Assembly: GCF_000517085.1 (NCBI RefSeq)
Contig: NZ_KI912107.1
Span: forward strand, 2,108,398-2,172,397
Length of the DNA: 64,000 nt
Direction: 5' to 3'
Source of the DNA: Saccharicrinis fermentans DSM 9555 = JCM 21142
Lineage (GTDB): Bacteria; Bacteroidota; Bacteroidia; Bacteroidales; Marinilabiliaceae
Made by a program: the position numbers and the translations under genes. Below, in pieces: positions 18,641-48,856 of the stretch. The notes below the pieces were generated by a model. It saw only the letters and a list, made by a program, of their open reading frames with translations. It made no database searches and was not told the DNA's origin. The stretch's first letter is position 1; each line of letters begins with the position of its first letter.

Positions 18641-18820
18641 ATGTTTATAATTTGTTTCTTAATGGTCATATGGAACTCGCCGTGATAATCATTCTCCTGT
18701 GTGAGAGATCACTCTCATGGCTCGTTTCATATGTTTAATTTTATCTTTCAATGCTCATATAGAACTCGCCTAAATGAATCATTCCCTTGTGTGTGAAACA
18801 ATTCTCATGGCGCACTTTAT
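18641..18820 (-). repeat. Repeat B, two tandem 90-bp copies
   Basis: On the minus strand two units of exactly 90 bp lie head to tail, bounded by ATAAAG (18820), ATGAAA (18730) and ATGAAA (18640). The last is the start of the 231-residue lipoprotein gene. Shared core: CACACAGGAGAATGATT and GGCGAGTTCCATATGACC. The unit nearer the gene could encode a 13-residue upstream peptide starting MKRAMRVISH. See the finding on element B. Confidence 0.9.
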
Positions 18821-18834
18821 AGTCCAATAGTATC

Positions 18835-20670
18835 CTATTTTATTTCTTTAAACTCAACTAATACCTGCCGGTAATTTTCAGGAAATAACGACACAATCAC
18901 GATGTTGTCTTTCGTCGATAAAACATATTGAGGCCTACCTTTCATCGTATACTCCTCTTCTTGAATCATTTTACTTAGAGAGTATTTCACCAGCTTAATA
19001 TCATCATAACCTGTTTCGTATCCATACGTGATACCATATATTGCATCTTTAGCTTCCTTAATGCAATAAGAACCATAATTATAATATAAATTACCATAAT
19101 CTTTTAGCTCTCCCAAATAAGTCATCTTATCATCAGCCGCATAAATAACACCATTATAATGTGTGATGCAGTAACTTCCAAGGTCTGAAATAGCGAATAT
19201 TTCGGAACTTAATGGATAAGATCCATGCTGCGAATCATTTTTAGAAATAGTTATTTCTCCATCGTCATCCCATTCATAATAAGCCATGCCTGCGGGCATT
19301 AGATTGGTTGTTATAGAAATAGCCGCATTTTCACCAGGAATCTTTCTAAATTCCAACTTACTATTTTCTCCAGTTTTACTTACCACATTACCGTTGGTCA
19401 AATCAACTACATGGCTACTTTCTCCCCAAACGCTATAATAGTTAGAGTTCAGCATTACCTTATCATTACCCATATACATAATATCGAAAGTTGATAAATT
19501 ATAGCTTATTTCCTTCAGTAGCGAGAGGTCTTGACTTGAATAAACATATATTTTTCCTACACCATCAACTGCATAAATATTCCCATCCTCTTCCTGATCA
19601 ACGTCTATAGCAACAATATCAGAAGGAAGATCTTTTTCGAATTCTATTGTCAACTCTTCTAAATCATATTTCAATAATTTTCCTTCGTTTTTACCCCAAA
19701 GTATCAATCCTTTTTGGTTCTTTGTAACAAAAGCATCATCAGGAACAAGATCAATTATCTCTCCGTTAGGTTGTTCAACTTTTATTAAATTACTGATACT
19801 GTATAGCTCTAAATAATTTCTCACCCGCACAGAATAATATACTTCATCTTTAAATGGAGGAAATAAATCTGTATACGTAATACAGTTTCTATCCTCGATT
19901 TGTGCAATTCTTTTTAATCCTATTTCGCCTTGAGAATCGCTACTAATATATATATCATACGATTTAAAATCATCACTTAAACTTGGCTCCCAGCTTAACG
20001 CTACGCAACCATATCTTCGTTCTGCTTTTAACAATTGAATTTTTTCTGGAGTTCCATATTGAATACGAAGAACCTTGCTATACTTTATACCATTTGTATT
20101 AGTCACATTTATTTGTAGGGTATGTAATCCAAGCGACAAATCATTCTCACTAATATCAAGCATTCCCTCTTCAGACAAAGTCCCTTCAAATAAAACACCA
20201 TCAATACTACTCGTGATGCTTATTTTTAAATCCTGATTGTTTTCAACATTGGTTCCGTCAATATTAAAACTAACCGTCTCGCTAGGTAAAAAAACATCGC
20301 AATCTTTTGGTTCAACCACCTGAACTACAGGAACATTGTCAGGAAGAACAGAAGAGCGTAATTGAAGGTTTAGATAATTCGTTCCATCATTTTTTTCAAC
20401 TTTTGCTTGGGCACCTCCATATAAAGGATTGTATGCATACACGGTATCTGCTAAATCGAAAGATCCGTTTAGTACGGCTATTCCAAGGTTATTGGTTGTT
20501 ACAACTTCCTTTTCCGGTTCAACAAACACATATGCACCTTCGATGGGTTCATTGTTGTAACTTACATTAACATATATTCTGTCTGGATCATGTAGAGTTC
20601 TTAATTCGTCTTTAGTACAAGAAAATAAGCTTAAGAAACATAAACTAATCAGTAATATTTTACACTTCAT
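18835..20670 (-). CDS. Large lipoprotein with Fn3-like and beta-propeller regions
   Basis: This 611-residue lipoprotein (MKCKILLISLCFLSLFSC, lipid Cys18) has an N-terminal transthyretin-like domain (about 28-105), an Ig-like domain (about 110-200), an Fn3-like domain (about 207-300, AERRYGCVALSWEPS) and a C-terminal propeller of six or so WD-like repeats (about 305-605). It is the first and largest member of the five-lipoprotein cluster. No enzymatic motif is visible; recognition of a polymer or cell-surface partner is the simplest guess. Confidence 0.65.
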   Translation of the reverse strand: MKCKILLISLCFLSLFSCTKDELRTLHDPDRIYVNVSYNNEPIEGAYVFVEPEKEVVTTNNLGIAVLNGSFDLADTVYAYNPLYGGAQAKVEKNDGTNYLNLQLRSSVLPDNVPVVQVVEPKDCDVFLPSETVSFNIDGTNVENNQDLKISITSSIDGVLFEGTLSEEGMLDISENDLSLGLHTLQINVTNTNGIKYSKVLRIQYGTPEKIQLLKAERRYGCVALSWEPSLSDDFKSYDIYISSDSQGEIGLKRIAQIEDRNCITYTDLFPPFKDEVYYSVRVRNYLELYSISNLIKVEQPNGEIIDLVPDDAFVTKNQKGLILWGKNEGKLLKYDLEELTIEFEKDLPSDIVAIDVDQEEDGNIYAVDGVGKIYVYSSQDLSLLKEISYNLSTFDIMYMGNDKVMLNSNYYSVWGESSHVVDLTNGNVVSKTGENSKLEFRKIPGENAAISITTNLMPAGMAYYEWDDDGEITISKNDSQHGSYPLSSEIFAISDLGSYCITHYNGVIYAADDKMTYLGELKDYGNLYYNYGSYCIKEAKDAIYGITYGYETGYDDIKLVKYSLSKMIQEEEYTMKGRPQYVLSTKDNIVIVSLFPENYRQVLVEFKEIK

Positions 20671-20907
20671 GAAAAACTAAATTAGGGATAAGTTAAAAGG
20701 GAATTCCTTCATTAAAATTCAAGGAAAATTAATATTTGTGCGTATCATAAAACAACTTTGCAATATAAACGCCACTTGTAAAGTAGGATATTAGGAAGAT
20801 AGAGCTTGCATATCATTAGTTTGGTTAATCGTTATCTGAGCACGAAAGTATAAAAATGAAATGAAATTGAAAAATGGATCCGTAGGTTCGTTTACAGAGC
20901 AGGCATA
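20671..20907. other. Intergenic region upstream of the lipoprotein cluster
   Basis: The region presumably carries the promoter of the minus-strand lipoprotein cluster. I found no full TTG-N19-TAnnTTTG match and no other structure. Confidence 0.3.
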
Positions 20908-20946
20908 AAAAAAGCACCCAAGATATTAATCCTAAGTGCTTTTTAT
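20908..20946 (-). terminator. Rho-independent terminator after tRNA-Leu
   Basis: On the minus strand an AAAAAGCAC...GTGCTTTTTTT hairpin lies 16 bp after the 3' end of the tRNA gene. The stem is about 8 bp and the U run is long. Confidence 0.8.
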
Positions 20947-20961
20947 CTTTATATTATGTAG

Positions 20962-21045
20962 TGCCCAGAACAGGACTCGAACCTGCACACCCTTACGAGC
21001 ATTGGCTCCTGAAGCCAACGTGTCTACCAATTTCACCATCTGGGC
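20962..21045 (-). tRNA. tRNA-Leu (anticodon CAG)
   Basis: The minus strand folds as a class II tRNA. Acceptor GCCCAGA pairs with TCTGGGC; the D arm has GGTAGACAC; anticodon stem TTGGC/GCCAA carries the loop TTCAGGA (anticodon CAG); a long variable arm is present; the T arm contains GGTTCGAGTCC. The discriminator base is A and CCA is not encoded. Length is 84 nt. Confidence 0.97.
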
Positions 21046-21212
21046 AAATGAGTAATCCAACAAAAAATAAGTGCTCACGAAATCCCCCTAAAGGATTAGC
21101 GCAAGCAAATTTAACAACAATAATTTATAAGTCCATCCAAAAAACAAACTAAAATCGCACAAAAATAGCTTCCAATACCATCTAATTTGCTTACACGAAC
21201 CCGTCATCCTAC

Positions 21213-22073
21213 TTATTCTCCTGTTTCAGAAGCACTCTCACGACAAATTTCGTCCAAAGATTTATGATTGCGCTTGGCCACTTTTTCAAAGTCCGACTCA
21301 AGCTCATATTTACCCGTCCTTATGCCTTCATAAATACCGCCAATAATGGTTCCTAAAAAATCGCCCAATGCAGCTTTGCGTTCTACAATATAATCTTCCA
21401 CAGAAATACTCTTATAAAACAAATTCAGTTGATATGCTTTATTGATAGCATCCGTTAGTTGTTGTTGGCTTACCAATTCACCACACAAATGATAGATTCC
21501 TGATAGCAAATCATCATTTGTAAGAAGCTTAAAGTACGCGTATGCAAGTTCATCTCTTGAAGTATAACCACACTTACCATCAGCTGCACAATTAATTATT
21601 CCACCCTTTTTTTTATAAACATCCACATATTCCAGGTCGGGCTCTATATAAATTCCATTTCTTCCTATAGCCCATTGCATGCCTGAATTTTTCACATCCT
21701 CCTCGGTTTGGCGATTGCTAGCCACAATGGGGCTAAAAGCATTCCCCTTCTCGGCACCAATAATACTGGTATAAACAATTTTTTTAACACCATTTTGCTT
21801 GGCAGCCTCAATCACATTACGATGTTGACCAACTCGTTTATCCGGATGATCCATGCCCGACACCAACAAAACAGCATCAACCCCCTTAAGAGCCATCAAA
21901 AAATCTTCTTTATTGTTATAATCACCCTTCCTAATTTCAACACCCAAAGTACTTGCTTTCTCGGGCGTACGAGCTATACCAATCACATTCTCCGCTCCTA
22001 TTTCAACTACTAATCTTTTAACAATGGCAGCACCTAAATTTCCGCTTGCTGCAGTAACCGCTATCTTCATCAT
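21213..22073 (-). CDS. NmrA/QorB-like NAD(P)-binding reductase
   Basis: This 286-residue atypical SDR has the N-terminal nucleotide-binding motif AVTAASGNLGAAIV (about 5-18) and the conserved segments VLLVSGMDHPDKRVGQHRN and IVYTSIIGAE. The length matches E. coli QorB (quinone oxidoreductase 2), which uses NADPH. It lacks a catalytic Tyr-x3-Lys pair in the usual place, as expected for the NmrA branch. It sits downstream of the racemase, separated by a palindromic repeat. Confidence 0.85.
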   Translation of the reverse strand: MMKIAVTAASGNLGAAIVKRLVVEIGAENVIGIARTPEKASTLGVEIRKGDYNNKEDFLMALKGVDAVLLVSGMDHPDKRVGQHRNVIEAAKQNGVKKIVYTSIIGAEKGNAFSPIVASNRQTEEDVKNSGMQWAIGRNGIYIEPDLEYVDVYKKKGGIINCAADGKCGYTSRDELAYAYFKLLTNDDLLSGIYHLCGELVSQQQLTDAINKAYQLNLFYKSISVEDYIVERKAALGDFLGTIIGGIYEGIRTGKYELESDFEKVAKRNHKSLDEICRESASETGE

Positions 22074-22202
22074 AATTTAATATTTTAATTTTAACGAAGG
22101 TAGGTGTTTGTACACCTAAAAGAAAGGTTAATTTACGCCAAACTAAGGTAAAAATGGAAGATAAAAAAGATCATTATTGCACTGTCATCATATCCTCTGC
22201 CC

Positions 22203-22267
22203 GTTTAACCCGAATGATACATTAGAACATCTCAATAGATTTTCTAATGCATTTTTCGGGATTAACT
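22203..22267. repeat. Repeat D, compact palindromic copy
   Basis: Two arms, TTAACCCGAATGATACATTAG and the near-complement CTAATGCATTTTTCGGGATT, make a hairpin of more than 20 bp around a loop of about 15 nt. The element ends at the racemase stop codon and may act as its terminator. Related sequences occur at 51456-51550, 54870-54930 and in the 61.6-62.6 kb tract. Confidence 0.8.
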
Positions 22268-22971
22268 CAAATACTAACACAACGCTTAACAATGGCATCC
22301 ACATGAATCCTTGTCGTATTCAGAAAAGGAAGATCCAAATACTTTTCGTGCTTAAACATCAAAGGAAACTCGGTACAGCCTAAAATGACTGCATCAATAT
22401 TATGCTTCTCTTTTAAATCCGATACGATCCCCAATATTTCATCTTTGGTTTCATCTTTAAAAACACCCAGTTCCAATTCCTTAAATAGTTTGGAGTTTAT
22501 CCATTCTATTTGTGCATTATCAGGAACAATGATCTCAATGTTTCGTCGCAGGAAATTTTGCTTATAAAAGTCACTCTGCATCGTAAATTTTGTTCCCAAC
22601 AAAGCACAACGTTTTGCTCCAATCGCTTGTGCTTTCTCAGCGCATACCTCCACAATACTAATCAAAGGTAAATCAACTTTAGCTTGAATTTCCTGAAACA
22701 ACAGATGCGGTGTATTGGCACTTAACACAGCAAAATTGGCTCCAGCACTTTTAATTTTATGCAAACACTGTATCAAATATTCGGACGCTTCGGTATATTT
22801 TTCATCCTGAAGTAAGCCAATAAATTTTGCCATCGTTACACTATAGACCACAATCTCAGGATAATTCAGACTACCATCACCATTCATCTTATCAAAAGCT
22901 TTGATTATTTCCTTATAATAATCAACGGTAGCCTCTGGTCCCAATCCTCCTAATATTCCAATTGTTTTCAT
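22267..22971 (-). CDS. Aspartate/glutamate racemase family protein
   Basis: From Met at 22971 (preferred because MKTIGILGGLGPEAT is the conserved N-terminus; six upstream codons follow a GTG) the protein is 234 residues. It has the C-terminal catalytic Cys in VILGCTEFPLM, while the first catalytic motif reads VLSANTPH, without the Cys of symmetric racemases. This asymmetric site resembles E. coli YgeA-type enzymes with Thr/Ser and Cys. It would interconvert L- and D-Asp or Glu; the substrate is not certain. Confidence 0.85.
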   Translation of the reverse strand: MKTIGILGGLGPEATVDYYKEIIKAFDKMNGDGSLNYPEIVVYSVTMAKFIGLLQDEKYTEASEYLIQCLHKIKSAGANFAVLSANTPHLLFQEIQAKVDLPLISIVEVCAEKAQAIGAKRCALLGTKFTMQSDFYKQNFLRRNIEIIVPDNAQIEWINSKLFKELELGVFKDETKDEILGIVSDLKEKHNIDAVILGCTEFPLMFKHEKYLDLPFLNTTRIHVDAIVKRCVSI

Positions 22972-23036
22972 TCGCTTTTCAATTAACACAACTATTTAAA
23001 CACTCTCACTTGCAATAACTTATCCATTACAAAAAA

Positions 23037-23477
23037 TTAGTATTTGATCCTGTTTAATATGGCCTTTCCATTTAATATTTGTTCAGAAAGCGATTTGATG
23101 GTTTCTGTTTTTGCAATCTCAAAAAATCCGTCACGTACAACTTTGTATTTATCATGCAAAGGACAAGGATTATCATTATGACATTCCTTTAAGCCAAATC
23201 CACACTTATGAAAACTAGCATCACCCTCAATCACATGTATTACTTTATACAAGGTAAGATCCGACTGATAATCATTAAAAAAGAATCCACCACCACGACC
23301 TTTCATGGAATCCATCAACTTATTTTTTGTAAGTATTTGGAGTATTTTAGCCGTATAAGCTTCCGGAGCTTCAATCTCTTTTGCTATTTCTCCCACTCCC
23401 GGTCTTTTTTCTTCCCAATTTCTCAATTGCACAAAAACCAAAGCCCTGATGGCATACTCGGTACTTTTCGACAACAT
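23037..23477 (-). CDS. nsrR: Rrf2-family NO-sensing regulator (NsrR-like)
   Basis: This 146-residue winged-helix regulator begins MLSKSTEYAIRALVFV. Its cluster-ligand motif has Cys92, Cys99 and Cys105 (KCGFGLKECHNDNPCPLH), almost the spacing of NsrR [Fe-S] ligands. It is encoded 3 bp after the NO-repair gene and faces a NO reductase across a shared control region, which strongly supports NO sensing over other Rrf2 roles such as IscR. It probably represses both promoters until NO damages its cluster. Confidence 0.82.
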   Translation of the reverse strand: MLSKSTEYAIRALVFVQLRNWEEKRPGVGEIAKEIEAPEAYTAKILQILTKNKLMDSMKGRGGGFFFNDYQSDLTLYKVIHVIEGDASFHKCGFGLKECHNDNPCPLHDKYKVVRDGFFEIAKTETIKSLSEQILNGKAILNRIKY

Positions 23478-23480
23478 AAC

Positions 23481-24206
23481 TTATTCGTTTATTAATTCTC
23501 GCTCCAAATTTAACGCTTTCTTAAATAGAATGTTGTTTTCTAAATGAATATGTCGATGTAAATCATTTTCAAAATCCTTCAAGGTTTGATAACTTACCCT
23601 ATATGTACTACATCCATCTGCAGGACAAGTATAGGAAGATGTTAGTTTAGCAATCTTTTCAAAACGTTCCCCTTCACTTTCATGTTCTGCCTGCATCACT
23701 TCAATGGCACTTTTCCCTTTATCGAAAACTACTACACCACTAATACCTTCCTTTTTATATTTTACCATTTTCCGTATATAAGGAAAAAGAATAAGTTCCT
23801 CTTTTTTCATATGGGCACTTAAATTTACCGCAGTCGCATCAAACAGTTCTCTAATTTCAAAAAGCTCAGGATGTCTTTCTCCATGTACATCACATAGCTT
23901 CTGCAACTTCTGTTGAATAAAAGGAATATTCTCGGTTACATAGGCATGGTGTCTTTTCTCTATATAATCACAGAGCACATCCAATTCCAATCCGTCGATA
24001 TACGCTGAATCAGGATCCTTTTGTGCGATCAATGCTTCTAATTCAGGAAGCAGCTGACTAACATCTACCTTTGATCTTTCACAGGCTTCCTTCAAACTAA
24101 TGCCACCTCCACAGCAAAAATCAATATTATTTTTATCAAATAATTGAGCCGTTTTAAAATTCGCTTTAACAATTTCTCCAACGCTTGTTTTTTCATTTAC
24201 ATTCAT
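23481..24206 (-). CDS. ric: Iron-sulfur cluster repair di-iron protein (RIC/ScdA/YtfE)
   Basis: This 241-residue cytoplasmic protein has an N-terminal ScdA_N domain with the CC motif NNIDFCCGGG (Cys31-Cys32) and a hemerythrin-like di-iron domain. Visible metal ligands are in RHHAYV, HMKKEELILFPYI, MQAEHESEGERF and DLHRHIHLENNILF. The family repairs nitrosylated Fe-S clusters and reacts with NO. It is first in the operon with nsrR, transcribed from the divergent promoter shared with norZ. Confidence 0.93.
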   Translation of the reverse strand: MNVNEKTSVGEIVKANFKTAQLFDKNNIDFCCGGGISLKEACERSKVDVSQLLPELEALIAQKDPDSAYIDGLELDVLCDYIEKRHHAYVTENIPFIQQKLQKLCDVHGERHPELFEIRELFDATAVNLSAHMKKEELILFPYIRKMVKYKKEGISGVVVFDKGKSAIEVMQAEHESEGERFEKIAKLTSSYTCPADGCSTYRVSYQTLKDFENDLHRHIHLENNILFKKALNLERELINE

Positions 24207-24288
24207 GATATCATCTTTTATTTTTTACAAAGATATCATTTTTTTATAAAAGGACATGTATATCTTTTTATAAAAAATGATATCTTTG
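24203..24288. promoter_or_regulatory. Mirror-image divergent promoter/operator between ric-nsrR and norZ
   Basis: A 24-bp arm at 24228-24251 and a 23-bp arm at 24266-24288 are inverted copies, differing only by one A in a run. Each arm ends in TATCTTTG reading outward, a TAnnTTTG -7 box, and contains GATATC within AAGATATCAT. A further ATGATATCAT palindrome overlaps the ric start codon (24203-24215). The half-site AAGATATCATTT resembles the enterobacterial NsrR half-site AAGATGCATTT. Coordinated NsrR control of both units is inferred. Confidence 0.7.
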
Positions 24289-24482
24289 CCAGCATTCAAC
24301 CCAACTCATATGTTAAAACCTCTTCTTGCGTATTGAAATAGCACAAAGAAAGCTTTACGGAAATAAAGCGCGACACCTTTAGGTGAATGAAAGTAAAGCA
24401 AGGCCGTTTTTTAATTAGATGCAATTTCATTGTAGAACAGATTTTCTAATACATGGGCTGGTATAACCTAAACACAAAAGTC

Positions 24483-26726: not shown

Positions 26727-26765
26727 CTGACCCATAAAATTATTAAAAGCAAAACTTACAACTAC

Positions 26766-26803
26766 AAAAAAAGGCTGGCCTGCATTACGCAAGTCAGCCT
26801 TAT
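26766..26803. terminator. Bidirectional terminator
   Basis: AAGGCTG (26771-26777) pairs with CAGCCTT (26795-26801). An A7 run on one side gives a U run on the minus strand, and an AU-rich run follows on the plus strand. It lies between the convergent norZ and M49-like genes. Confidence 0.7.
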
Positions 26804-26908
26804 ATTTTATGATATAAAATCATCAACAACGAAGCTATCCACCTTAAAGAACAGGCATGCTACATCAAATATTTTCAAGTAAAATATTCCCCATCTCCCA
26901 TCAAATCA

Positions 26909-28554
26909 CTACCACTGAAGCATTTTCACACCTTGTTCAAAAACAATATCACGTGGTATACCAGCTTCAGCAATCTTATCCAAATCTGCTTGTAATTCAG
27001 GTTGAATAAAACCAAGTTCCTGGATCATCTTTTGCGCTTTGGCATAATCACCATCTCCTTGCAACACCAATATCTCTCTCGAGAGCTCAATCATCGCTAT
27101 GCGCATCTTATCAAAATCCACTTTGTATTTTCCACTGGCTTCATCCTTGGTAAATGCTCCTTTATCTTTAAAATAATTAAAACGGATCATATTGGCTTTT
27201 CCGTGCGAACTAGATGCTCCAAAACGAATAGATCGGAACAAACCGGCCATAAATGTCACATAGTTATCCATCAACACCTGATCTTCACCCAGCTCGTTCA
27301 TTTGTGTCAACATATCCACCATATACAAACCTAAAATATCAGCTTTTCCTTCTTCAATGGCCGTTGATGTCTCTTTCAAGGCCTCACGAACAGTACCCGA
27401 ACCATTCAAGGTATTCTTAATTCCCAAACCGTGCGCTACCTCATGAAACATGGTATTCTCAAAAAAAGCGTCAAAAGTCACGTTATTTTGTTGTTCATCA
27501 ACAATCAGCAACTCACTAATGGGCAGTAAGATCTTATCAAACTTAGCTCTCATAGAGTTCTTCAATTGTATCTTACGGCTTCCTTTTTGCAAATGTACTT
27601 TAGGATCGTTAGGCAAATTAATGGCAATTGTTTTACTACCTGCATTACAATCGCCACCATAATAAACCACATCATAAGCTCCTAAATCGGAATCACATCC
27701 TGGAATTTCTGCTTTATATTTAGCATCCACTGGCAGTTCCTTTTGAAGCTTAGGCAATAAAGATGCAAAATGCGCCAGCTTTTCCGACCATTCCATATCT
27801 TTAATCAAGATATATGCTTCAAAGGATGTTTTTGCACCCAAAAGAGCATCTTCATAGTTTTCTATAGGCCCCACCACAAAGTCTATCTGATTATTCTTCA
27901 TACTCATCCAAGCCAAATCACTCTCAAAGTACTCGCTATTTAATAATGCTTTCGCTCTTTTCTCCAAATAATCTTTAAAACCATCATCCTCAGCCAAGAC
28001 TGCTGCTTGTTTAAGCAAGTCTGCTGCTTTTTTCAACGCTCCGGCATAGGCCACGTGATAGGGGATTACTTTCAGTTTTCCCTCACCATCTCTTTCAATA
28101 ATCGTATACTGACTATTTTTTGCCTCATCTTCCAAAGCTTCAAATTCCTCCTTGGTCATATCATGTGGATAAAATTGCGCACCCGCTGGCTTCTTACCAA
28201 TTCCTTCAATGAAAGAGGAATTTCCATTCAGCCGTTCCCATGGACCATAATTAATTTCCAGGTACTTTTTGACATACGGGTCATCCACCCTCGACATCAA
28301 AGCTTGCTTATCTCCCCATGCTTGTTGCCAGAAAAGATCATCCATAACTTGAGCCGCTTCAAACAAGAGAGGTAACATTTTTTTTGATTGACAGATAAGG
28401 AAGAAACGTCAGCTGTAAGTTTAAACGAAGCAAACTCTTCCACTTTCTCCTTTACATTTGGGATAGATGCTGCATATTTGGTTTCCTCAGCCTCAGGACA
28501 CTGACAAGAAAACAAAAAAACACCCAACCCGAATAGATACAAATAATTCTTCAT
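26909..28554 (-). pseudogene. M49-like zinc peptidase lipoprotein, frameshifted at an A8 tract
   Basis: Two overlapping frames make one gene. The first (28554 downward) gives a lipoprotein signal (MKNYLYLFGLGVFLFSC) and 60 mature residues ending VNQKK. The second (from 28378) gives 489 residues with HEVAHGLG (HExxH zinc site) and EEGKAD (the third ligand Glu, like EECRAD/E of dipeptidyl peptidase III relatives). The minus strand has 8 A before TGTTACC; nine would join CAA-AAA-AAA-ATG-TTA in one frame of about 549 codons. It may be a true mutation, slippage-corrected expression or a base-calling error. The catalytic domain itself is intact but would lack export. Confidence 0.8.
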
Positions 28555-30982: not shown

Positions 30983-31079
30983 AAGGTGATTTTAAGATGG
31001 GTTATACTTACATAGTAAACATAATACTCTACAGCCTATACAATTGTACACGCCCACAAATACACTCAAAACCTATGTA

Positions 31080-31332
31080 GTGGCTGCAAGAAAACGACTG
31101 TTTTTTCTGTCTTTGATAAGAAACGAGCATGAATTTTAGCATTCTAAAATACACACAGAAGAATGATTAAAATTCATCGGGAGTTCCATATGACCATTGA
31201 AAGACAAATTATAATCATATGAAAGCTTCAAAGACAAGGCTTTCGATATTTTTGAAACCAAGGAGTTTACTGATTGTAAATGACTGTTTCAAAAATGAGA
31301 ATAACGCAGTATTTGAAGTCTTCTTGCAAAGA
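31080..31332. repeat. Element A copy 1, interrupted by element B
   Basis: The ends GTGGCTGCAAG and CTTGCAAAGAC are those of the 153-bp element A (see 38654 and 61218). A 7-bp direct repeat CTATGTA flanks it (31073-31079 and 31333-31339), suggesting a target duplication. After removal of a 100-bp insertion at 31124-31223 the remainder is 153 bp. Confidence 0.85.
31124..31224 (+). repeat. Element B inserted inside element A
   Basis: This copy of element B has the arms ATGAATTTTA and TAAAATTCAT around a CATTCT...AGAATG inner stem. GAAA is present on both sides (31120-31123 and 31221-31224), so the insertion point in element A and a short duplication can be read directly. It shows that element B is or was mobile. 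Confidence 0.85.
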
Positions 31333-31355
31333 CTATGTACTGAGCTAACAATACA

Positions 31356-36011: not shown

Positions 36012-36020
36012 ACGCATAAA

Positions 36021-36956: not shown

Positions 36957-36984
36957 GAAAATAAATCAATAATAAAGTCAAAAA

Positions 36985-38640: not shown

Positions 38641-38653
38641 TATTCCTTACAGA

Positions 38654-38806
38654 GTGGCTGCAAGAAAACTACTGTTTTTTTTGTCTTTGATAAGAAAATT
38701 TCAAAGACAAGACTTTCGATATTTCTGAAACCAAGTAGTTTACTGATTGTAGATGACTGTTTCAAAAATAAGAATAACGCAGAATTTGGAGTTTTCTTGC
38801 AAAGAC
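38654..38806. repeat. Element A copy 2 (153 bp)
   Basis: Termini GTGGCTGCAAGAAAAC and GTTTTCTTGCAAAGAC. The inner hairpins TGTCTTTGA/TCAAAGACA and TGAAAC...GTTTCA are conserved with copies 1 and 3. It occupies most of the gap between the symporter and the FAD oxidoreductase genes and has no coding capacity. Confidence 0.9.
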
Positions 38807-38834
38807 TACATAGAATACTATAAAATATAAAACA

Positions 38835-41114: not shown

Positions 41115-41172
41115 CAAAATACGGAACAAGCCTCCATATCATGAAACACCTTATAAAAGATAATTAGAATAT

Positions 41173-41366
41173 ATGAAACGAACATGAATTTTAGCATTCT
41201 AAAATACACGCAGGAGAATGATTAAAATTCATCGAGAGTTCCATATGGCAATTGAAAGATAAATTTAAACATGAAACGAGCCATGAGAGTGACCTCTCAC
41301 ACAGGTGAATGATTATCACGGCGAGTTCCATATGACCATTAAGAAACAAATTATAAACATATGAAA
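41173..41366 (+). repeat. Element B, two tandem copies ending at a GH2 start codon
   Basis: ATGAAA occurs at 41173, 41271 and 41361; units of 98 and 90 bp lie between. The first unit has the A/T-rich stem ATGAATTTTA/TAAAATTCAT, the second the GTGA/TCAC-type stem. The last ATGAAA is the start of the GH2 gene. The sequence left of 41173 reads GAATATATGAAA, so an original start site may have been duplicated. Confidence 0.9.
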
Positions 41367-43070
41367 TACATCTATCTAATAATAATTGCATTCAGCATTC
41401 ACATATACACAACAGCACAACAGCCTTCTATTTCGTTAAATGGAAGATGGAATTTTTTTGCATCTAACACCCAAACTGAATATGAAGTTCTGGCTAACTA
41501 TCAAATCCATTGGGATCGCATTACAGTTCCAGGCAACTGGGATGTGATGGACAAATATGCCACATATGTAGGAAAAGGATATTACCAAAGAGAATTTGAA
41601 GTGCCTGTTTCTTGGAAAGGCAGGCAAGTGTATATTAAATTTGATGCTGTATATCAAACTTCAAAAGTTTGGGTTAATGGGAAACAATTGGGAGAACATA
41701 TTGGAGGCTATACTCCTTTTGAGTATAACATCTCGGACATAGTAAATTATGACAAGCCTAATACAGTATTGGTGATGGCTGATAATTCATACAAAAGAGG
41801 AGCTTGGTGGGCATGGGGAGGAATTAGTCGTGATGTCTCCCTAAATGTTAGCAATGATGTTAGAATGATCTATCAGCATATTACGGCTATCCCAGATTTT
41901 GATGCAAACAGCGTAAAGTTTATCTTTAAATATAAACTTGAAAACAACTCCTGTAAAAACTACAAAGGACGTATTATCTCGAAAACTTCAGATAAGTCAG
42001 ACCCCATCATTACAAAAATATCTTTGGATGGTCACCAGACCAAAACCGAAGAAGTGACTTTTGAAAATAAACTTTCGGATTATGAATTATGGGATTTCGA
42101 TAACCCAAAGTTATATACCTTAAACAGCAAACTGGAAATAAAAGGAAAAGTATTTGGTTCTCTCTCCAATCAATTTGGCATTCGCAAACTGGAGGCTCGT
42201 GGAGAACAATTATTCCTCAACAACAAAGTAGTCAGAATGAACGGAATAAATCGTATTCACGACCACCCCCTCTATGGAAATACGGAACCCGATCAGTTAG
42301 TCAAACAGGATATGCTCGACATTAAGTCAATGGGCTGCAATTTTGCCAGATTAATGCATGCTCCTTTATCTAAAAATTTATTAAACCTATGTGACAGTAT
42401 CGGTTTTCTAATCATCGAGGAGATTCCTGTTTGGGGTAATGATGATCCTCAATCATTTCCTGACAATCCCCTTACCGAAAAATGGCTAAAGGAAATGATT
42501 GAAAGAGACTATAACCACCCTTGCGTAGTTGGTTGGAGCGTGGGCAATGAGTTAAGAGATTCACTACCTAACTGGGGGAAAAAACTTTTAACATCTGCTC
42601 AGCACGATTATATTGTTTCTATGCTTGATTATATCGATATCCTAGACACTACACGTCTAAAAACCTACGTCAGTCTCACCTGCTATAGTGAAGGTGTAAA
42701 CTACAGTAATGAACCCATTGATAAAGTAGACTTAATTTGCTTAAATTCATATGGTAACTCCCCCCAAGCAGTACGTACAACGCATGAAAATTTTCCAGGT
42801 AAACCTATCTTCTTATCTGAAGTAGGCCTGAATCAAATAGGACCAGCTCCTGATGCAATGCTTCAGGATAGGCTGATAAGGTATATGAATGAAATGAAAA
42901 CATATCCTTATTTGGTTGGCATATCTTACTGGTGCTATAACGACTATCGGAGCAACTATAAGGGAACGCCGGAATCCGGCTTTCGTGAATGGGGAGTAGT
43001 GGATGAACAGCGAAAACCCAAGACTGCTTATCAGCAATTAAAAGAAATCTACAAAAATTGGAATCAATAA
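41361..43070 (+). CDS. GH2-family glycoside hydrolase (beta-galactosidase-like)
   Basis: This 569-residue secreted protein has a signal peptide (about 1-19, ending TTAQQ), a sugar-binding jelly roll (about 25-170; LNGRWNFFA and ITVPGNWD), an Ig-like domain (about 175-280) and a TIM barrel. The acid/base is Glu397 in VGWSVGNELRD and the nucleophile Glu487 in PIFLSEVGLNQ. It is short for GH2, ending right after the barrel. In this context it probably removes beta-linked galactose from galactan oligosaccharides. It is followed after 18 bp by a larger GH2. Confidence 0.88.
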   Translation: MKYIYLIIIAFSIHIYTTAQQPSISLNGRWNFFASNTQTEYEVLANYQIHWDRITVPGNWDVMDKYATYVGKGYYQREFEVPVSWKGRQVYIKFDAVYQTSKVWVNGKQLGEHIGGYTPFEYNISDIVNYDKPNTVLVMADNSYKRGAWWAWGGISRDVSLNVSNDVRMIYQHITAIPDFDANSVKFIFKYKLENNSCKNYKGRIISKTSDKSDPIITKISLDGHQTKTEEVTFENKLSDYELWDFDNPKLYTLNSKLEIKGKVFGSLSNQFGIRKLEARGEQLFLNNKVVRMNGINRIHDHPLYGNTEPDQLVKQDMLDIKSMGCNFARLMHAPLSKNLLNLCDSIGFLIIEEIPVWGNDDPQSFPDNPLTEKWLKEMIERDYNHPCVVGWSVGNELRDSLPNWGKKLLTSAQHDYIVSMLDYIDILDTTRLKTYVSLTCYSEGVNYSNEPIDKVDLICLNSYGNSPQAVRTTHENFPGKPIFLSEVGLNQIGPAPDAMLQDRLIRYMNEMKTYPYLVGISYWCYNDYRSNYKGTPESGFREWGVVDEQRKPKTAYQQLKEIYKNWNQ

Positions 43071-43088
43071 TATGCTATTAATTAAAAA

Positions 43089-46000
43089 ATGAAATATCTA
43101 CAAATTACATGTGTAATACTAACCCTTTTTAGCTCTATTAACGCTCAAAATCGTTCCAATAAAGAGCAATTATCTTTAAACGGAAACTGGAAGTTTCATA
43201 CCATCTATGGCGAGGGTTCTAATTACATGAATATTCAAGAAACAGCAAGTGATCTTGTGATAGACAACCAGGATCCTAATGTTGAGGTACAAGGTAAATG
43301 GCAGACCTCTCAAAAAGGAGCGCGCGACACCCAATTTTATGGTACCGACTATAGGCAGCACTATTTTTCATTAACTGACCTACAAAAAGGTGGTCACTCA
43401 GATAGTTCATATGTCCGTTTTTACCCACATTTCACAAAGTCTGGATACTACGAGGTTTTTACAAAATATCCATTTGCATCTCACCTCACAGCTCAATATA
43501 ATATAAACCATGCAGGTGGCATCACCACCAAGTATGTAAGTCAAAGAGTATTCTGTGGAGAATGGAATAGCCTAGGTATATATGAATTTAACACTTCCCA
43601 TAAAAACTATGTGGAGCTCACTGCCATTGTAAGTGGCACTGTTGCTGCTGATGCAGTCATGTTCAGAGAAATATCAAAAGAAAAATATATACGCGCAAAA
43701 GAAGAACCTAAACAAGTGTATCTAAGTAATTTTGATGACACTGATTGGCACCAGCTAACGGTACCAGGACATTGGGGAATGCTAAATGAATATTCAAACT
43801 ATACCGGCATTGGTTGGTATCGAAAAACACTGGTTCTTCCAGCGTCCTGGACTAAAAATTCTGATGAAAGATATTATTTAAAGTTTGGCGGTGTTTATCA
43901 TCTTTCCAGGGTCTATCTGAACGGTAAATTTATGGGAATAAATAGAGGTGGCTTTACTCCATTTGAATTTGATGTGACCGAAGCCCTCAACTTCGAAGGC
44001 AAGAATGTCATTGTTGTTCAAGCCGATAACAGTGCCATCGTAGGAGCTACTTGGAACTGGGGGGGAATCATCAGAGATGTAAGACTGACAAGGAACAAAG
44101 ATATTAGAATTAACTATCAGTACATCCATGCAGAACCAAATCTAAAAAATGGTACCGCACTGATAAAATTAAAGGTAAAAGTAGAGAATAATTCTTCGCA
44201 AAAACGAAGAATACAAGTAAACGCTCAAATTCTCAACGAAAAAAGAATAGGAACCTTAAAGGGCAGCCTCGAAATAGATCCTCATACGTCAAATGACATT
44301 CACTTAGAAACAATGCTAAAATCAAAAGATGTGGAATTATGGCATTTTGACAACCCTAAACTTTACCAGGTAAAAACAAGTATTACAGAAGGGAAAACGA
44401 TCTTAAATCAACGACAAGATTATTTTGGAATACGAAAAATAGAGCTAACAGATTCTCAAATGTTACTCAATGGAGAACCGGTTCGCTTGGCAGGATTTAA
44501 CCGAGTAAGTGAACACCGTTTTTGGGGTTCTTCGGAACCATTAGAAGTGCTGGAAAAGGATGTGGACCTAATGAAAGAAGCGGGCGCTAATTTTATGAGA
44601 ATTATGCACGGAACACAAAACGAAAAACTCATTGATTTATGCGATAAAAAAGGAATAATGATTTTTGAAGAAATCAATGTAAGAGATCTGGATAATGATG
44701 AATTTAGGGCCAACTACTATCCACTTGCTCAATTTGAAAAAGAAACAAACAGTAAGCTTGACAGCGAAAATGAGGAAATTTTAATGCTCGATGAACCCTA
44801 TGTGAGACTTACCGATAAACATGGCATATCTGTAAAAGAAAAAAATTACTTTCTTGCTAAATATTGGCTAAAAGGAATGATTGAACGCGACATAAATCAC
44901 CCCAGCATTATTGGTTGGAGCGTTGGTAACGAATTAAATAACCATTATGAATATGCTAAAGCAGCTATTGATTATGTAAAAAAAGATTTGGATCCCTATC
45001 GACTACTTACCTGTGTAAGTAATTCAGGACGGAAAAAAGAATATACTCCCCAAACCGATGCAAATACTCATGTAGATTTAATCATGCACAATATGTACCG
45101 TTGGCAAGGTGATCCGCAAGAGATATTAACCACCTTAAGAACTAAATGGCCCGACAAACCTATTTTTATATCTGAGTTTGGTTTCGACCCATTTCCCTCA
45201 ACAGCCTTGGACGCTGATAAGGAAATTTTCTCGGAATGGATCAACCATTTCAGACATAAAAACGAATTTGTGATTGGAACATCCATGTGGACTTTCAATG
45301 ATTACAGAAGCGGATATGCAGGTACAACAGCTGAAGAAAACAGGGTGTGGGGAGTAATTACCTCATGGAGACAAAAAAGAAGGCTATTTCCACGCATAAA
45401 AAAAGAACATGCACCGGTAAAGGATATCGAAATCTCAAATATTGACTTTGAGAAAAACACTGCCAATGTAAGAATCCCTGTAAGAAGCGTCAGCGATTAC
45501 CCTAGTCATACCATGCGTAACTATAAATTAGTCTACCAATTTAAAAATAGTAAAGGTCAAACAATTTTCGATAACTATATTCTTCTGCCTGATATAAAAC
45601 CAGCGGACAAAGAATGGCAAGGTACTATTTCATGGAAGGCATTACCCTCCGACCTATTGGAATTAAGGGTCAGCCTGGTAACACCCACAAACTATTCCCG
45701 TTTTGATAAAACAGTCTCTTTCCGACAAGCAATCACACCTGAAATATCAAATATCGTTGCGGGAAAAAATGCAGTGCGAATCCAATTCAATCATGTACCT
45801 AATGCTACTGAATATTTCGTTAAGTATACAGCTAATAATGAAGAAGAAAAAGAATCTTACAAAACAATTGATCGTTATATAGATATTAAAGGCCTTGAAG
45901 ACACCAAGGAATATAGCTTCCAACTATATGCCACAAATGACAAAGGAATTAGTAAAGCATCTAAAACAGTTAAAGCTAGTACAACCACAAAGAGCTTACC

Positions 46001-46247
46001 TCCTATTATTTGGGATGCTTTTATAAGTAATCACAAATTGGTCATTGGATACTCCAGCGATTTTAACGATGGAATATACACCATAAAATATGGAAACGAC
46101 GAAAAAAAACTGAATAAAATATTTACCTCAAACGTAAGAGGTATGCTATCGATAGATGTAGAAGCAGAAGAAAAAGTTTATTTTAAGATGAAGCGAATGA
46201 CAAAGAATGGAGAAAGCAAATGGTCGGAGATAGTGGAAGTCCATTAA
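43089..46247 (+). CDS. GH2-family hydrolase with inserted golvesin-like and C-terminal Fn3 domains
   Basis: This 1052-residue secreted enzyme has a signal peptide (1-19). The GH2 jelly roll starts LSLNGNWKFHT and is interrupted by about 140 residues (56-195) of golvesin-like character (LVIDNQDPNVEVQGKW, NHAGGITTKYVSQ, GEWNSLGIYEF, VAADAVMF), then resumes at HQLTVPGHWG. The TIM barrel has acid/base Glu615 (IGWSVGNELNN) and nucleophile Glu696 (PIFISEFGFDP). An Fn3-like domain (about 885-970) and a short beta tail follow. The insert may bind polysaccharide. Confidence 0.85.
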   Translation: MKYLQITCVILTLFSSINAQNRSNKEQLSLNGNWKFHTIYGEGSNYMNIQETASDLVIDNQDPNVEVQGKWQTSQKGARDTQFYGTDYRQHYFSLTDLQKGGHSDSSYVRFYPHFTKSGYYEVFTKYPFASHLTAQYNINHAGGITTKYVSQRVFCGEWNSLGIYEFNTSHKNYVELTAIVSGTVAADAVMFREISKEKYIRAKEEPKQVYLSNFDDTDWHQLTVPGHWGMLNEYSNYTGIGWYRKTLVLPASWTKNSDERYYLKFGGVYHLSRVYLNGKFMGINRGGFTPFEFDVTEALNFEGKNVIVVQADNSAIVGATWNWGGIIRDVRLTRNKDIRINYQYIHAEPNLKNGTALIKLKVKVENNSSQKRRIQVNAQILNEKRIGTLKGSLEIDPHTSNDIHLETMLKSKDVELWHFDNPKLYQVKTSITEGKTILNQRQDYFGIRKIELTDSQMLLNGEPVRLAGFNRVSEHRFWGSSEPLEVLEKDVDLMKEAGANFMRIMHGTQNEKLIDLCDKKGIMIFEEINVRDLDNDEFRANYYPLAQFEKETNSKLDSENEEILMLDEPYVRLTDKHGISVKEKNYFLAKYWLKGMIERDINHPSIIGWSVGNELNNHYEYAKAAIDYVKKDLDPYRLLTCVSNSGRKKEYTPQTDANTHVDLIMHNMYRWQGDPQEILTTLRTKWPDKPIFISEFGFDPFPSTALDADKEIFSEWINHFRHKNEFVIGTSMWTFNDYRSGYAGTTAEENRVWGVITSWRQKRRLFPRIKKEHAPVKDIEISNIDFEKNTANVRIPVRSVSDYPSHTMRNYKLVYQFKNSKGQTIFDNYILLPDIKPADKEWQGTISWKALPSDLLELRVSLVTPTNYSRFDKTVSFRQAITPEISNIVAGKNAVRIQFNHVPNATEYFVKYTANNEEEKESYKTIDRYIDIKGLEDTKEYSFQLYATNDKGISKASKTVKASTTTKSLPPIIWDAFISNHKLVIGYSSDFNDGIYTIKYGNDEKKLNKIFTSNVRGMLSIDVEAEEKVYFKMKRMTKNGESKWSEIVEVH

Positions 46248-46410
46248 TAACTATTTTACATTTGTATGTAGATTGTATTGCATTTCAACAAACAAGTATA
46301 CCCCATCATGTATACCTATTTGTAAATCTAAAAATACCTAAGGAATCAACACTGAACTATATTCGCCTGTAATAAAGGCAAGATTCATAATGACATTTAA
46401 AAGATATATC

Positions 46411-47493
46411 ATGAAATATTTAATTGCTATCATAGCTATCTTACTGACAATGAATTCGTGTCAGACGCATTCAAAAAAATCAAAAGAATTTAAACTACAG
46501 TTGGGTAAGGTTGCCCAACATTCTATATTTAGCGGCGGCGATACCATAACCCATTGGGGAGGCTCATTGGTAAAAGGTGAAGATGGTCTTTATCACATGT
46601 TCTACGCTCGATGGAAAAAAAATTTGGGATGGGCTTGGGTTACCCATTCTGAGATTGCACACGCTGTGTCCGCATCTCCCTTTGGCCCTTTTAAACATAA
46701 AGACATTGTGCTTCCAGCCCGAGGTGCAACATATTGGGACGGTTTGTGTACTCATAATCCCACTATTCATAAGTTTGATGGAAAATATTACCTATACTAT
46801 ATGGGAAATACGGGCGATGGAATAAATCCCTGTGTGCCAGGTAAGTTAAAGTACAACTGGAAACACCGTAATAATCAACGTATCGGCGTAGCTGTAGCTG
46901 ATAATCCCAATGGTCCCTGGAAACGCTCTGATGCCCCCTTAATCGATGTAAGCTCCGACAGCACAGCTATGGATGCTTTATTGGTAAGCAATCCCTCCAT
47001 TACCCAAGGTCCGGATGGAGCCTACTTGATGGTATATAAAGCGGTTGGAAAAAAGAAGAAAGGAATAGCCGGTGGACCTGTTGTTCATTGTGTTGCTACT
47101 TCCGATAACCCTACTGGACCATTTAAAAAATATGATTTTCCGGTATTTACAGCCGAAGGTCATGACTTTCCGGCTGAAGACCCTTCTATTTGGTATCAGG
47201 ATGGAAAATATAGAGCCATCGTAAAAGATATGCACGGCGCATTTACCAGTGCAGGCCAAGCATTGGTGCTATTTGAGTCAAACGACGGTTTCCACTGGAA
47301 ATTGGCTTCTAAACCTTTGGTTTCAAAGCTTGAGCTAAATATGAAAAACGGTAAACATTTAAAATTAAATCATTTGGAACGCCCCCAAATATATAAAGAA
47401 AATGGTCAAGCCATTGCCTTACTCTGTGCCGCTGATACGATTGATTCAAAGGGGGTAATACATGCATGGAATGTTCAAATCCCATTAAAATAA
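46411..47493 (+). CDS. Five-bladed beta-propeller glycosidase-like lipoprotein
   Basis: The ATG at 46411 is preferred because MKYLIAIIAILLTMNSC is a clean lipoprotein signal (lipid Cys17); the ATG at 46390 only adds seven residues. The 360-residue protein has propeller repeats such as WDGLCTHNPTIHKFDGKYYL, SNPSITQGPDGAYLMVYKA, PAEDPSIWYQDGKYRAIVK and HLERPQIYKENGQAIALLCA. These acidic strand starts are GH43/GH117-superfamily-like, but I cannot assign a CAZy family or the catalytic residues. It is a close paralogue of the gene at 48851. Confidence 0.7.
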   Translation: MKYLIAIIAILLTMNSCQTHSKKSKEFKLQLGKVAQHSIFSGGDTITHWGGSLVKGEDGLYHMFYARWKKNLGWAWVTHSEIAHAVSASPFGPFKHKDIVLPARGATYWDGLCTHNPTIHKFDGKYYLYYMGNTGDGINPCVPGKLKYNWKHRNNQRIGVAVADNPNGPWKRSDAPLIDVSSDSTAMDALLVSNPSITQGPDGAYLMVYKAVGKKKKGIAGGPVVHCVATSDNPTGPFKKYDFPVFTAEGHDFPAEDPSIWYQDGKYRAIVKDMHGAFTSAGQALVLFESNDGFHWKLASKPLVSKLELNMKNGKHLKLNHLERPQIYKENGQAIALLCAADTIDSKGVIHAWNVQIPLK

Positions 47494-47499
47494 TAAATC

Positions 47500-48753
47500 A
47501 TGAAAAAAAATATTTACAGAAGTTTAATATTGATCATTGGCATACAGGTCATTGGCCTAAACATCCATGCCCAACTACCCTCTTCAATTGATACTACGCA
47601 AAATTGGTTCCTCTCGTGGAGCGATGATTTCAATGAGGAAGATCCACAATTAGATAATAAATGGGAAAGTCAGAATGGACCAAGTGGGCATATTTTATGT
47701 AGCCGCTGGAGAGAGAATGCTGTTGTAAAGAATGGTGTTCTTGAACTTCAGGCCAGAAAAGAAAAACGAGGGGGACAGGAATGGACTGCAGGAAACATCT
47801 GGACCAAAAAACGCTTCAAATACGGGTATTTTGAATGTCGTTACAAATATGCGGCAGCTGAAGCCACCAATAATTCATTTTGGTTAATGACCAAAGGTAA
47901 TGAACCTACTGAAGGAAAAAGATTTGAAATCGATATAAACGAAGGACATTATCCCAACGAGGTAAATACCAATATTCATCAATGGTCCGACATAACCATT
48001 GACAAGCAAGGAAAAAAAACACATTATTCCTACCATAAAGGTTTTCCTTTTGGGGCAAAACCAGGTTATTCTATTCAACTGGAAATTCCCATATCTGTCA
48101 AGAAAGTCAGATTGACATCCAGAAACCATGCACGGTTTAACATAGGCGAGTTCCGCGTTTATGGAGTAAATGATGGTAAGTACCCCGATGTGATGTCACC
48201 CACAGCCCACAAAGACATAGCCGGATTAAAAAATTTAGCTTCAGCAGAAAATGTAAAAATCACATCCAGCGGTTCATATAAAAACAATCAGTCAGAAAAT
48301 AAACTGACAGATGGTAATCCCAAGTCTGCTTGGAGCACCCAAGAAATGGGTGAAAAATGGGTCCAATTTGAATGGGATGAAGACATCACAATCGGATGTA
48401 TTCAATTTTTAAATGGATGGCAAGACAAACATAATAATTGGCACGGCCTAATGAGTAATTATCAGTTACAGTACTTCAAAAATGGTAAATGGATAGATAT
48501 TACAGAATTGGATGTGACCCAGAGTTACAATTTTGCAGAAGAATTTCACACCTATGGCTTATTATGGAATGAAAAAGAAATTATTTTTTATTTTGATGGA
48601 AAAGAAATCCGAAGAGAAGTTAACTCCTTCTGCTATAGCGAAACACCTATATGGTTAAGCTTGGCAATTATCCCTTGGTCTGGCCCGGTGACCGATGCCA
48701 TAGATGGTACAAGCATGAAAGTTGACTATGTAAAGTATTATCAACAAAAATAA
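47500..48753 (+). CDS. GH16-family endo-hydrolase with an internal discoidin-like insertion
   Basis: This 417-residue secreted protein (signal about 1-24) has the GH16 catalytic motif EIDINE (Glu143 nucleophile, Asp145, Glu148 acid/base). The second half of the jelly roll, EEFHTYGLLWNEKEIIFYFD, only appears at 348-367. Residues about 182-342 between them read as an F5/8C (discoidin) domain in permuted order: KKVRLTSRNHARFNIGEFRV first, then NLASAENVKITSSG and WVQFEWDEDITIGCIQF. Endo-cleavage of agar-, porphyran- or carrageenan-type galactan is inferred. It lies 6 bp after the preceding propeller gene. Confidence 0.85.
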   Translation: MKKNIYRSLILIIGIQVIGLNIHAQLPSSIDTTQNWFLSWSDDFNEEDPQLDNKWESQNGPSGHILCSRWRENAVVKNGVLELQARKEKRGGQEWTAGNIWTKKRFKYGYFECRYKYAAAEATNNSFWLMTKGNEPTEGKRFEIDINEGHYPNEVNTNIHQWSDITIDKQGKKTHYSYHKGFPFGAKPGYSIQLEIPISVKKVRLTSRNHARFNIGEFRVYGVNDGKYPDVMSPTAHKDIAGLKNLASAENVKITSSGSYKNNQSENKLTDGNPKSAWSTQEMGEKWVQFEWDEDITIGCIQFLNGWQDKHNNWHGLMSNYQLQYFKNGKWIDITELDVTQSYNFAEEFHTYGLLWNEKEIIFYFDGKEIRREVNSFCYSETPIWLSLAIIPWSGPVTDAIDGTSMKVDYVKYYQQK

Positions 48754-48759
48754 ACAAGC

Positions 48760-48856
48760 ATGAAACGAGCCATACTAAAGTATTTCTCACACAGGAGTAT
48801 GATTAGTTTTGGTGAGTTCCATATGGCCTTTAAAAGAAAATTATAAAGCTATGAAA
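48760..48856 (+). repeat. Element B, single copy ending at a lipoprotein start codon
   Basis: ATGAAA at 48760 and 48851 bound a 91-bp unit. Its stem reads ACTAA/TTAGT instead of the GTGAT/ATCAC or ATTTTA/TAAAAT of other copies. The core CTCACACAGGAGTATGATT is kept. The right ATGAAA starts the next gene. Confidence 0.9.

What the first reader, a model, noticed from the sequence alone, without database searches (positions are those of the whole stretch)
18641..48856. Element B: a repeated leader whose edges are ATGAAA start codons
Six copies (two at 18641-18820 minus, one at 31124, two at 41173-41366, one at 48760). Each begins and ends at ATGAAA (ATAAAG once; only GAAA flanks the copy inside element A). 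At three loci the right edge is the start codon of the next gene (231-aa lipoprotein, GH2, propeller lipoprotein). Units are 90, 90, 90, 91, 98 and 100 bp. It looks like an element that inserts at or rebuilds start codons and places its own 5' leader before the gene.
Basis: seen in the sequence. Interest (0 to 1): 0.82.

Follow-up and report, generated by a model that had tools for sequence, protein, structure and literature searches.

The report
Mini-transposon that lands on start codons
A DNA unit of about 90 letters, repeated many times in this bacterium, sits on the start signals of genes and hands each gene a new start signal; it looks like a stripped-down relative of RNA-guided jumping genes whose guide RNA appears to spell out a gene's start.

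Summary
The core matches 177 places in this 5.98-Mb genome (6 for the reversed pattern). Of 105 distinct copies read, 91 end at ATGAAA; in 62 that ATG opens a frame of at least 60 codons, 11 run into another copy, 10 more lie in element A.

Best reading: a non-autonomous ~90-bp 'mini-IS' of the IS110 family. In related Bacteroidota, IS110 transposons carry the same left end and core, most with the same right end. A second IS110, six copies in this genome, ends at ATGAAA gene starts in 6 of 6. Its predicted bridge RNA holds a guide reading TTTCAT (ATGAAA), while the other guide follows the left flank across five homologues (46 of 50 bases; 1 of 120 permutations).

So these elements appear programmed for translation starts, and B brings its own ATG, which keeps the gene readable. 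Same-genus leuB, ksgA and hemH show no intact copy.

Not shown: movement, RNA expression, which enzyme moved B in this genome (no matching recombinase remains), any effect on translation. Selection against insertions inside genes may contribute to the start-codon bias.

The parts
18731..18820 (-). element B copy 1 of a tandem pair; left edge ATAAAG, right edge ATGAAA of the next copy
18641..18730 (-). element B copy 2; right edge is the ATG at 18640
17945..18640 (-). 231-aa ORF whose start codon is the right edge of B; CarboxypepD_reg match below the curated cut-off
31118..31224 (+). element B inside the hairpin loop of element A (GATAAGAAA|B|GCTTC)
31075..31335 (+). element A interrupted by B; A without B at 38649-38808 and 61213-61372
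41173..41270 (+). element B copy 1 of a tandem pair (98 bp subtype)
41271..41360 (+). element B copy 2 (90 bp, burst subtype); right edge is the ATG at 41361
41361..43070 (+). 569-aa GH2 gene whose start codon is the right edge of B
48760..48850 (+). element B (91 bp); right edge is the ATG at 48851
48851..49969 (+). 372-aa GH43-type protein whose start codon is the right edge of B

Best explanation
Element B is a non-autonomous mini-IS of the IS110 family: about 50 bp of left end (ATGAAAC.. to the CACACAGGNGAATGATT core) followed by about 40 bp ending in a right end like AAATTATAAACAN. A DEDD recombinase supplied in trans, guided by a bridge- or seekRNA whose guides contain ATGAAA, joins the element to a target at ATGAAA, which is often the start of a gene. 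For B the crossover falls inside the shared GAAA, so the left junction keeps the old start codon and the right junction carries the element's own ATG plus the rest of the gene. The reading frame survives, the old start becomes a short upstream ORF, and the gene gets a structured leader of about 90 nt. Repeated insertion at the rebuilt ATGAAA makes tandems. Shown in sequence: edges, copy number, ends shared with IS110 transposons, guide/target covariation, orthologs without an intact copy. Inferred: movement in trans, RNA expression, the recombinase that served in this genome.
For: Edges and ORF starts in 105 own copies. IS110 genes directly after the core in L158/L094, L189 and L208 (found through the core, so selected for it); in a search by protein alone, 4 of the 5 relatives with at least 57% identity have the B-type left end (L226 by eye; L225 is L158 again). 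Right ends of L208, L189 and L222 read AATTATAAACA[GT]|ATGAAA like B. Two bases before ATGAAA in RNA motif M2 equal the right end in 6 of 6 elements (4 of 720 permutations). Own second IS110: 6 of 6 at ATGAAA gene starts; left guide follows the left flank, 46 of 50, 1 of 120 permutations; right guide holds TTTCAT in 5 of 5. Element A empty and filled sites. leuB, ksgA, hemH orthologs. A mini IS with LE 50 bp and RE 46 bp moves in trans for ISEc11 (passage in PMC11187229).
Against: No L208-type transposase matches in this genome, so the mobiliser here is missing. The downstream RNA of the L208 type is only partly decoded: M1 fits the left flank in 3 of 5 and the antisense guides were not found. 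L224 (57% identity) has neither the B-type left end nor the same right end, and L189 and L158 do not end at a long ORF. P1 and P3 do not covary within this genome's copies. In other genomes 82 of 170 core hits have no ATGAAA edge within 75 nt. 10 of 30 further right flanks of the second IS110 type are not ATGAAA. IS621-like loops are not both clean in the whole-leader fold.
Confidence: 0.8

Rival explanations
1. B is an unrelated, REP-like repeat that IS110 elements use as a landing pad, as IS621 uses REP and IS1111 uses QMITE2; the L208-type elements merely interrupt B copies.
For: The second IS110 does sit at B right edges in L216, L218 and L220 (by eye) and at B left edges in 7 of 30 further copies. 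IS110s aiming at repeats are known (passages in PMC11208160; abstract of PMC5896051).
Against: In the L208 type the middle segment of B (GGNNNTTCCATNNG) is missing from both halves (by eye), so these are not B copies cut in two. M2 matches the element's own right end plus ATGAAA in 6 of 6, as expected if the ends lie at ATGAAA.
Confidence: 0.12
2. The guide only specifies a short ATGAAA/GAAA word; start codons stand out because insertions elsewhere are lost by selection. Not exclusive with the best explanation, but it lowers the claim of start-codon programming.
For: Insertion in element A at AAGAAA; left edges GTGAAA, CTGAAA, ATAAAA in a minority; ATGAAA words open a 60-codon frame in 28% even without B.
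Against: The left guide of the second IS110 extends to AAACAGAT, a context upstream of starts, and its own targets match it at 8 to 10 of 10 bases.
Confidence: 0.35
3. B is a cis-regulatory leader RNA (riboswitch-like) that spread by duplication or gene conversion, not by transposition.
For: Structured (z -2.6 to -4.1 for four window copies); P1 and P3 covary in other genomes; sits directly before genes.
Against: No Rfam match; unrelated downstream genes; insertion in element A; tandems; absence from same-genus orthologs; shared ends with IS110.
Confidence: 0.05
4. B is a REP/RAYT- or IS200/IS605-type element moved by a Y1 transposase.
For: Hairpin ends beside a fixed tetranucleotide; four Y1 matches in the genome.
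Against: Two of the four have stop codons inside, the other two are in open frames of 141 and 105 codons; the one in L002 reads, by eye, into element A, not B. No Y1 gene was seen between B-type ends in the loci I read.
Confidence: 0.03

Closest known systems
IS621 / IS110 family with bridge RNA (PMC11208160, passages read)
   Same: DEDD recombinase; leader RNA with two loops; left guide sense, right guide antisense, core in each guide; no target duplication beyond a short core
   Different: Targets a translation start (AAACANATGAAA) instead of REP; accompanied by a 90-bp derivative without a recombinase gene
IS1111 family and seekRNA, ISEc11 mini IS (PMC11187229, abstract and passages read)
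   Same: Non-coding region downstream of the transposase in the L208 type; mini IS of LE 50 bp + RE 46 bp moves in trans, close to the size of B
   Different: No subterminal inverted repeats found in L208; the mini IS there is man-made, B is natural and abundant
QMITE2, a MITE targeted by IS1111 (PMC5896051, abstract read)
   Same: Small repeat used as target by an IS1111-family element
   Different: There the repeat is a target with REP; here the repeat shares both ends with the IS and sits on start codons
REP elements and RAYTs (recalled)
   Same: Short structured repeats beside a fixed tetranucleotide, many copies
   Different: The partner is a DEDD recombinase, not a Y1 transposase

Membership tests
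IS110 family (B as non-autonomous derivative) | A DEDD_Tnp_IS110 / Transposase_20 gene between the same ends in autonomous relatives | tested here: met
   L208 414 aa with PF01548 and PF02371; B-type left end in L208, L189, L158, L222, L223; L224 lacks it
IS110 family (B as non-autonomous derivative) | Seamless insertion around a short shared core, no further target duplication | tested here: met
   element A empty and filled sites share only GAAA; one clean case
IS110 family (B as non-autonomous derivative) | Guide RNA complementary to target and donor | tested here: inconclusive
   L208 type: M2 6 of 6, M1 3 of 5, antisense guides not found; B itself not shown to carry or use one
IS110 family (B as non-autonomous derivative) | Circular intermediate, recombination activity | not testable with these tools
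   needs PCR and plasmid assays
IS110 group with IS621-type bridge RNA (own second IS110, L215 type) | Upstream RNA with left/right target and donor guides | tested here: met
   guides by position in the 219-nt leader; left guide covaries, right guide fixed; RNA itself not observed
IS1111 group (L208 type) | Non-coding region downstream of the transposase | tested here: met
   conserved region between tnp stop and right end in six elements
IS1111 group (L208 type) | Subterminal inverted repeats | tested here: not met
   no inverted pair at both ends of L208
Classical MITE | Terminal inverted repeats and target duplication | tested here: not met
   by eye from copies; direct ATGAAA edges instead
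REP/RAYT or IS200/IS605 derivative | Y1 transposase with the same ends | tested here: not met
   four Y1 matches in the genome, none intact-looking with B ends
Known RNA family (Rfam 15) | Match at gathering score | tested here: not met
   window: only one tRNA; L215, L208, L222: none at E 0.1

The most novel reading that the evidence does not exclude
Element B is a self-guiding RNA parasite of translation starts. Its middle segment is the reverse complement of its own joined right and left ends (at least 12 of 14 bases in 12 of 33 copies from other genomes, 0 of 33 with shuffled letters, but 0 of 40 in this genome), so its transcript could act as guide or splint for whichever IS110 recombinase is present. 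The hairpin that encloses the borrowed AUG would also put scores of unrelated genes under one structured leader: a regulon made by RNA-guided transposition.
Probability: 0.15. Interest if true: 0.95.

Novelty: new variant of a known kind. Interest (0 to 1): 0.82.

Why it matters
Bridge-RNA transposons are known to aim at repeats such as REP. Here two IS110 lineages and a 90-bp derivative appear aimed at the translation start, a site present at thousands of genes, and B arrives with a replacement ATG, so that even core genes (leuB, ksgA, hemH) carry it. That would be a safe-harbour strategy for an RNA-guided element, a natural mini-IS showing how little sequence suffices, and a way by which one family rewrites 5' leaders across a genome. 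The natural guide variants (TAATGAGAT, GTTGTTAT, AAACAGAT, with ATGAAA fixed) are ready-made tests of target programming. I found no paper on start codons as IS110 targets or on IS110-derived mini-IS families in the listings (open-access library only; most listed papers were not opened).

Tried and rejected
Y1/RAYT mobiliser: four matches, two with stops, one reading into element A. Known RNA families: none. Phage and plasmid records: no match with one copy at E 1e-5, with the note that records near this genome may be left out. Chain of overlapping ATGA stop/start codons: the left ATG's frame ends at or before the right ATG in 67 of 67 copies with an ATG left edge, but copies are related and the chain is not kept in older copies, so I do not claim it. 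RNAalifold on 68 aligned copies (5 of 73 representatives dropped beforehand) gave no structure with default settings and -8.7 kcal/mol with RIBOSUM; I used arm-against-arm tests instead. There 60 of 73 representatives could be parsed. Own-genome copies show no P1/P3 covariation (928 and 1844 of 5000 shuffles reach the observed value) and no 12-of-14 splint match (0 of 40): I read this as decay plus one dominant sequence, but it does not support the structure. In other genomes 82 of 170 core hits have no ATGAAA edge within 75 nt and 12 are cut off; some are hits in unrelated phyla, many come from two Bacteroidales MAGs with longer cargo (by eye). Script slips: the left edge of L012 (GTGAAA) and L038 (ATAAAA) is misassigned; the right-flank field of L315 took a later match, and I use the flank read. 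Gaps: the 107 hits became 88 because both edges were required.
Full report
OBSERVATION. The six copies are real. The core CACACAGGAGAATGATT with up to 3 mismatches occurs 6 times in the window against 0.20 expected and 177 times in the genome against 6 for the reversed pattern. BLAST with one copy finds 55 places, with 40 of 229 first-look candidates scored. I read 105 distinct copies (107 hits) in fetched stretches and the window; about 70 hits were not fetched. Of the 105, 91 end at ATGAAA: in 62 this ATG opens a frame of at least 60 codons (one of them, L023, inside element A), 11 are followed by another copy, 10 more lie in element A, 8 are none of these; 14 have no such edge. In the same loci 186 of 673 ATGAAA words open such a frame. 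A first pass with a 50-codon limit gave 66 of 107 against 2.2% of random 57-nt windows. These are mechanical ORF starts.

EDGES. Of 88 own copies with both edges found, the left edge is ATGAAA in 67, AAGAAA in 11 (the element-A copies), ATAAAA in 5, GTGAAA in 3, CTGAAA in 2; two of the rarer ones (L012, L038) are script misassignments. Element A gives an empty site: GATAAGAAA directly followed by A sequence at 38689 and 61253, and GATAAGAAA-[B]-GCTTC from 31115. The shared sequence is GAAA. So the ATG at the right junction belongs to B: after insertion the gene's start codon is the element's own.

ORTHOLOGS. leuB in 7, ksgA in 8 and hemH in 8 same-genus genomes show no intact copy in the 150-190 nt before the gene, judged by eye; this genome has one at each. 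A possible decayed remnant lies upstream of leuB in G002. Starts there are ATGAAA in 7 of 7 (leuB), ATGAAA, ATGAAG or ATGAGA (ksgA), ATGAAA, ATGAG[CT] or ATGAGA (hemH). Upstream spacers are not conserved, so these loci date the insertions but give no base-exact empty sites.

WHO CARRIES IT. The exact core with one free base occurs in 21 of 198 genomes, this one included, with 0 for the reversed control: 47 here, 0 to 5 in each of 8 same-genus genomes, 50 in G120 of another family. Of 170 copies in L085-L214, 76 have an ATGAAA edge within 75 nt; 36 of these open a frame of at least 60 codons, 21 are tandem, 19 neither; 82 have no such edge, 12 are cut off.

AUTONOMOUS PARTNERS. In L158/L094, L189 and L208 an IS110 transposase follows the core directly. 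L208 (Algoriphagus MAG) is intact: 414 aa with PF01548 and PF02371. Its left end reads ATGAAATATCCATGACGGGAGCGCGACACACAGGGGGATGATTAT, its right end CAATTATAAACAG|ATGAAA, the start of a DivIC gene; a B copy lies immediately to its left. A search of 149 genomes with this protein matched 34, not this genome. Of the five matches with at least 57% identity, L222 (same genus, intact), L223, L225 (L158 again) and L226 (by eye) have the B-type left end, L224 has not. Right edges of six elements: ORF of at least 60 codons in L208, L222 and L224; a B copy in L223; no long ORF in L189 and L158. Downstream of the transposase a conserved region holds two ATGAAA motifs. In M2 the two bases before ATGAAA equal those of the right end in 6 of 6 (4 of 720 permutations); in M1 they equal the left flank in 3 of 5 (4 of 120). 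I read them as left donor and left target guides (inference). The pair AT, commonest at the right edge of this genome's copies (24 of 40 representatives), equals M2 of L222, so an L222-like enzyme is a plausible former mobiliser.

THE SECOND IS110. This genome has six identical 1256-bp copies of another IS110 (337 aa) and a seventh, divergent one. All six have ATGAAA on the right: the frame is 243 codons in L216 and open to the end of the stretch (294 codons) in the other five; the left flank is like AAACATAT or AAACAGAT. The 219-nt leader contains, between CTGCTG and CAGCAG..TATTAAACAGAT AGATTGAATCTA AGTTTCATATTAAG.., and between TTGAGT and ACTCAA..AGAGTATTTA GGGCAGAACCC ACTATCACGATG... By the IS621 rules (passages of PMC11208160) these fit left and right target guides for AAACAG-AT-GAAAC and left and right donor guides for GAGT-AT-CGT. 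Four homologues (68-90% identity) have left guides TTAAACACAT, ATAATGAGAT, TTGTTGTTAT, ATAAACATAG beside left flanks TTAAACATAT, ATAATGAGAT, TTGTTGTTAT, ATAAACATAT; with the own element this is 46 of 50, reached by 1 of 120 permutations, while the right guide holds TTTCAT in 5 of 5. Of 30 further right flanks, 20 are ATGAAA (all those from G041, G002, G022 and G064): 7 open a frame of at least 91 codons or to the end of the stretch, 7 are the left edge of a B copy, 6 neither. The 10 from G070 and G033, more distant subfamilies, are ATGTAT, ATGAAT or ATGTGC. The whole-leader fold does not show both loops cleanly; the RNA was not observed.

STRUCTURE OF B. Four window copies fold better than shuffles (z -2.6 to -4.1). 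In 25 representatives from other genomes the left arm and middle segment (P1), and the middle CATNNG and right edge NNNATG (P3), covary (0 of 5000 shuffles each); in 35 own representatives they do not. The middle segment thus resembles the reverse complement of the joined right and left ends (12 of 33 other-genome copies at 12 of 14 or better, 0 of 40 own). P3 holds the start codon: predicted AUG accessibility 0.13 (63 B-led starts, related copies) against 0.38 (109 other starts), p=0.006; translation was not measured.

MECHANISM. Best supported: RNA-guided IS110-type recombination at ATGAAA, with B as a natural mini-IS. Precedent for size: LE 50 bp + RE 46 bp suffice for ISEc11 in trans (passage of PMC11187229). 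Selection surely contributes: a start codon is one of few places where a unit ending in ATATGAAA leaves a gene whole. For the L215 type the guide evidence argues that targeting is encoded; for B it is inferred from ends shared with the L208 type.

LITERATURE. Seen: abstract, section list and passages of PMC11187229; passages of PMC11208160, PMC9769881, PMC10969869, PMC4596501; abstract and section list of PMC5896051; listing only of PMC11208158. IS110s aiming at REP and IS1111 aiming at a MITE are in print; nothing on start codons as targets or IS110-derived mini-IS families appeared in the listings.

Noticed in passing
window 31075-31335, 38649-38808, 61213-61372; L002: Element A overlaps, by eye, the reading frame of a RAYT-like Y1 fragment in L002 and may be a RAYT-type unit; it carries B in its hairpin loop in 11 of the own copies read.
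   Followed up: partly
L006, L028, L070, L080; window 41165-41172: Some B copies end in AATTAGAGTAT|ATGAAA, the right end of the other IS110 (L215 type): chimeric right ends, unexplained.
   Followed up: no
L134 (7433 and 7902 on the minus strand), other JAIPBW and PWNQ loci: Two Bacteroidales MAGs have the B left end and core followed by longer, repetitive cargo; one pair is 469 bp apart.
   Followed up: no
L224 2902-3702: An IS110 relative without B-type left end sits at the start codon of an rRNA adenine dimethylase gene.
   Followed up: no
L269 (G076): leuB of another family in the order has a B-like leader with a degenerate core directly before ATGAAA (by eye).
   Followed up: no
L316 (G077): An L215-type IS110 with guide TTGTTGTTAT appears by eye to have landed on the start of an IS3-like orfA frame.
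   Followed up: no
window 61415-63036: Cluster of direct repeats (D2-D5, D9, D10), apparently unrelated to B.
   Followed up: no
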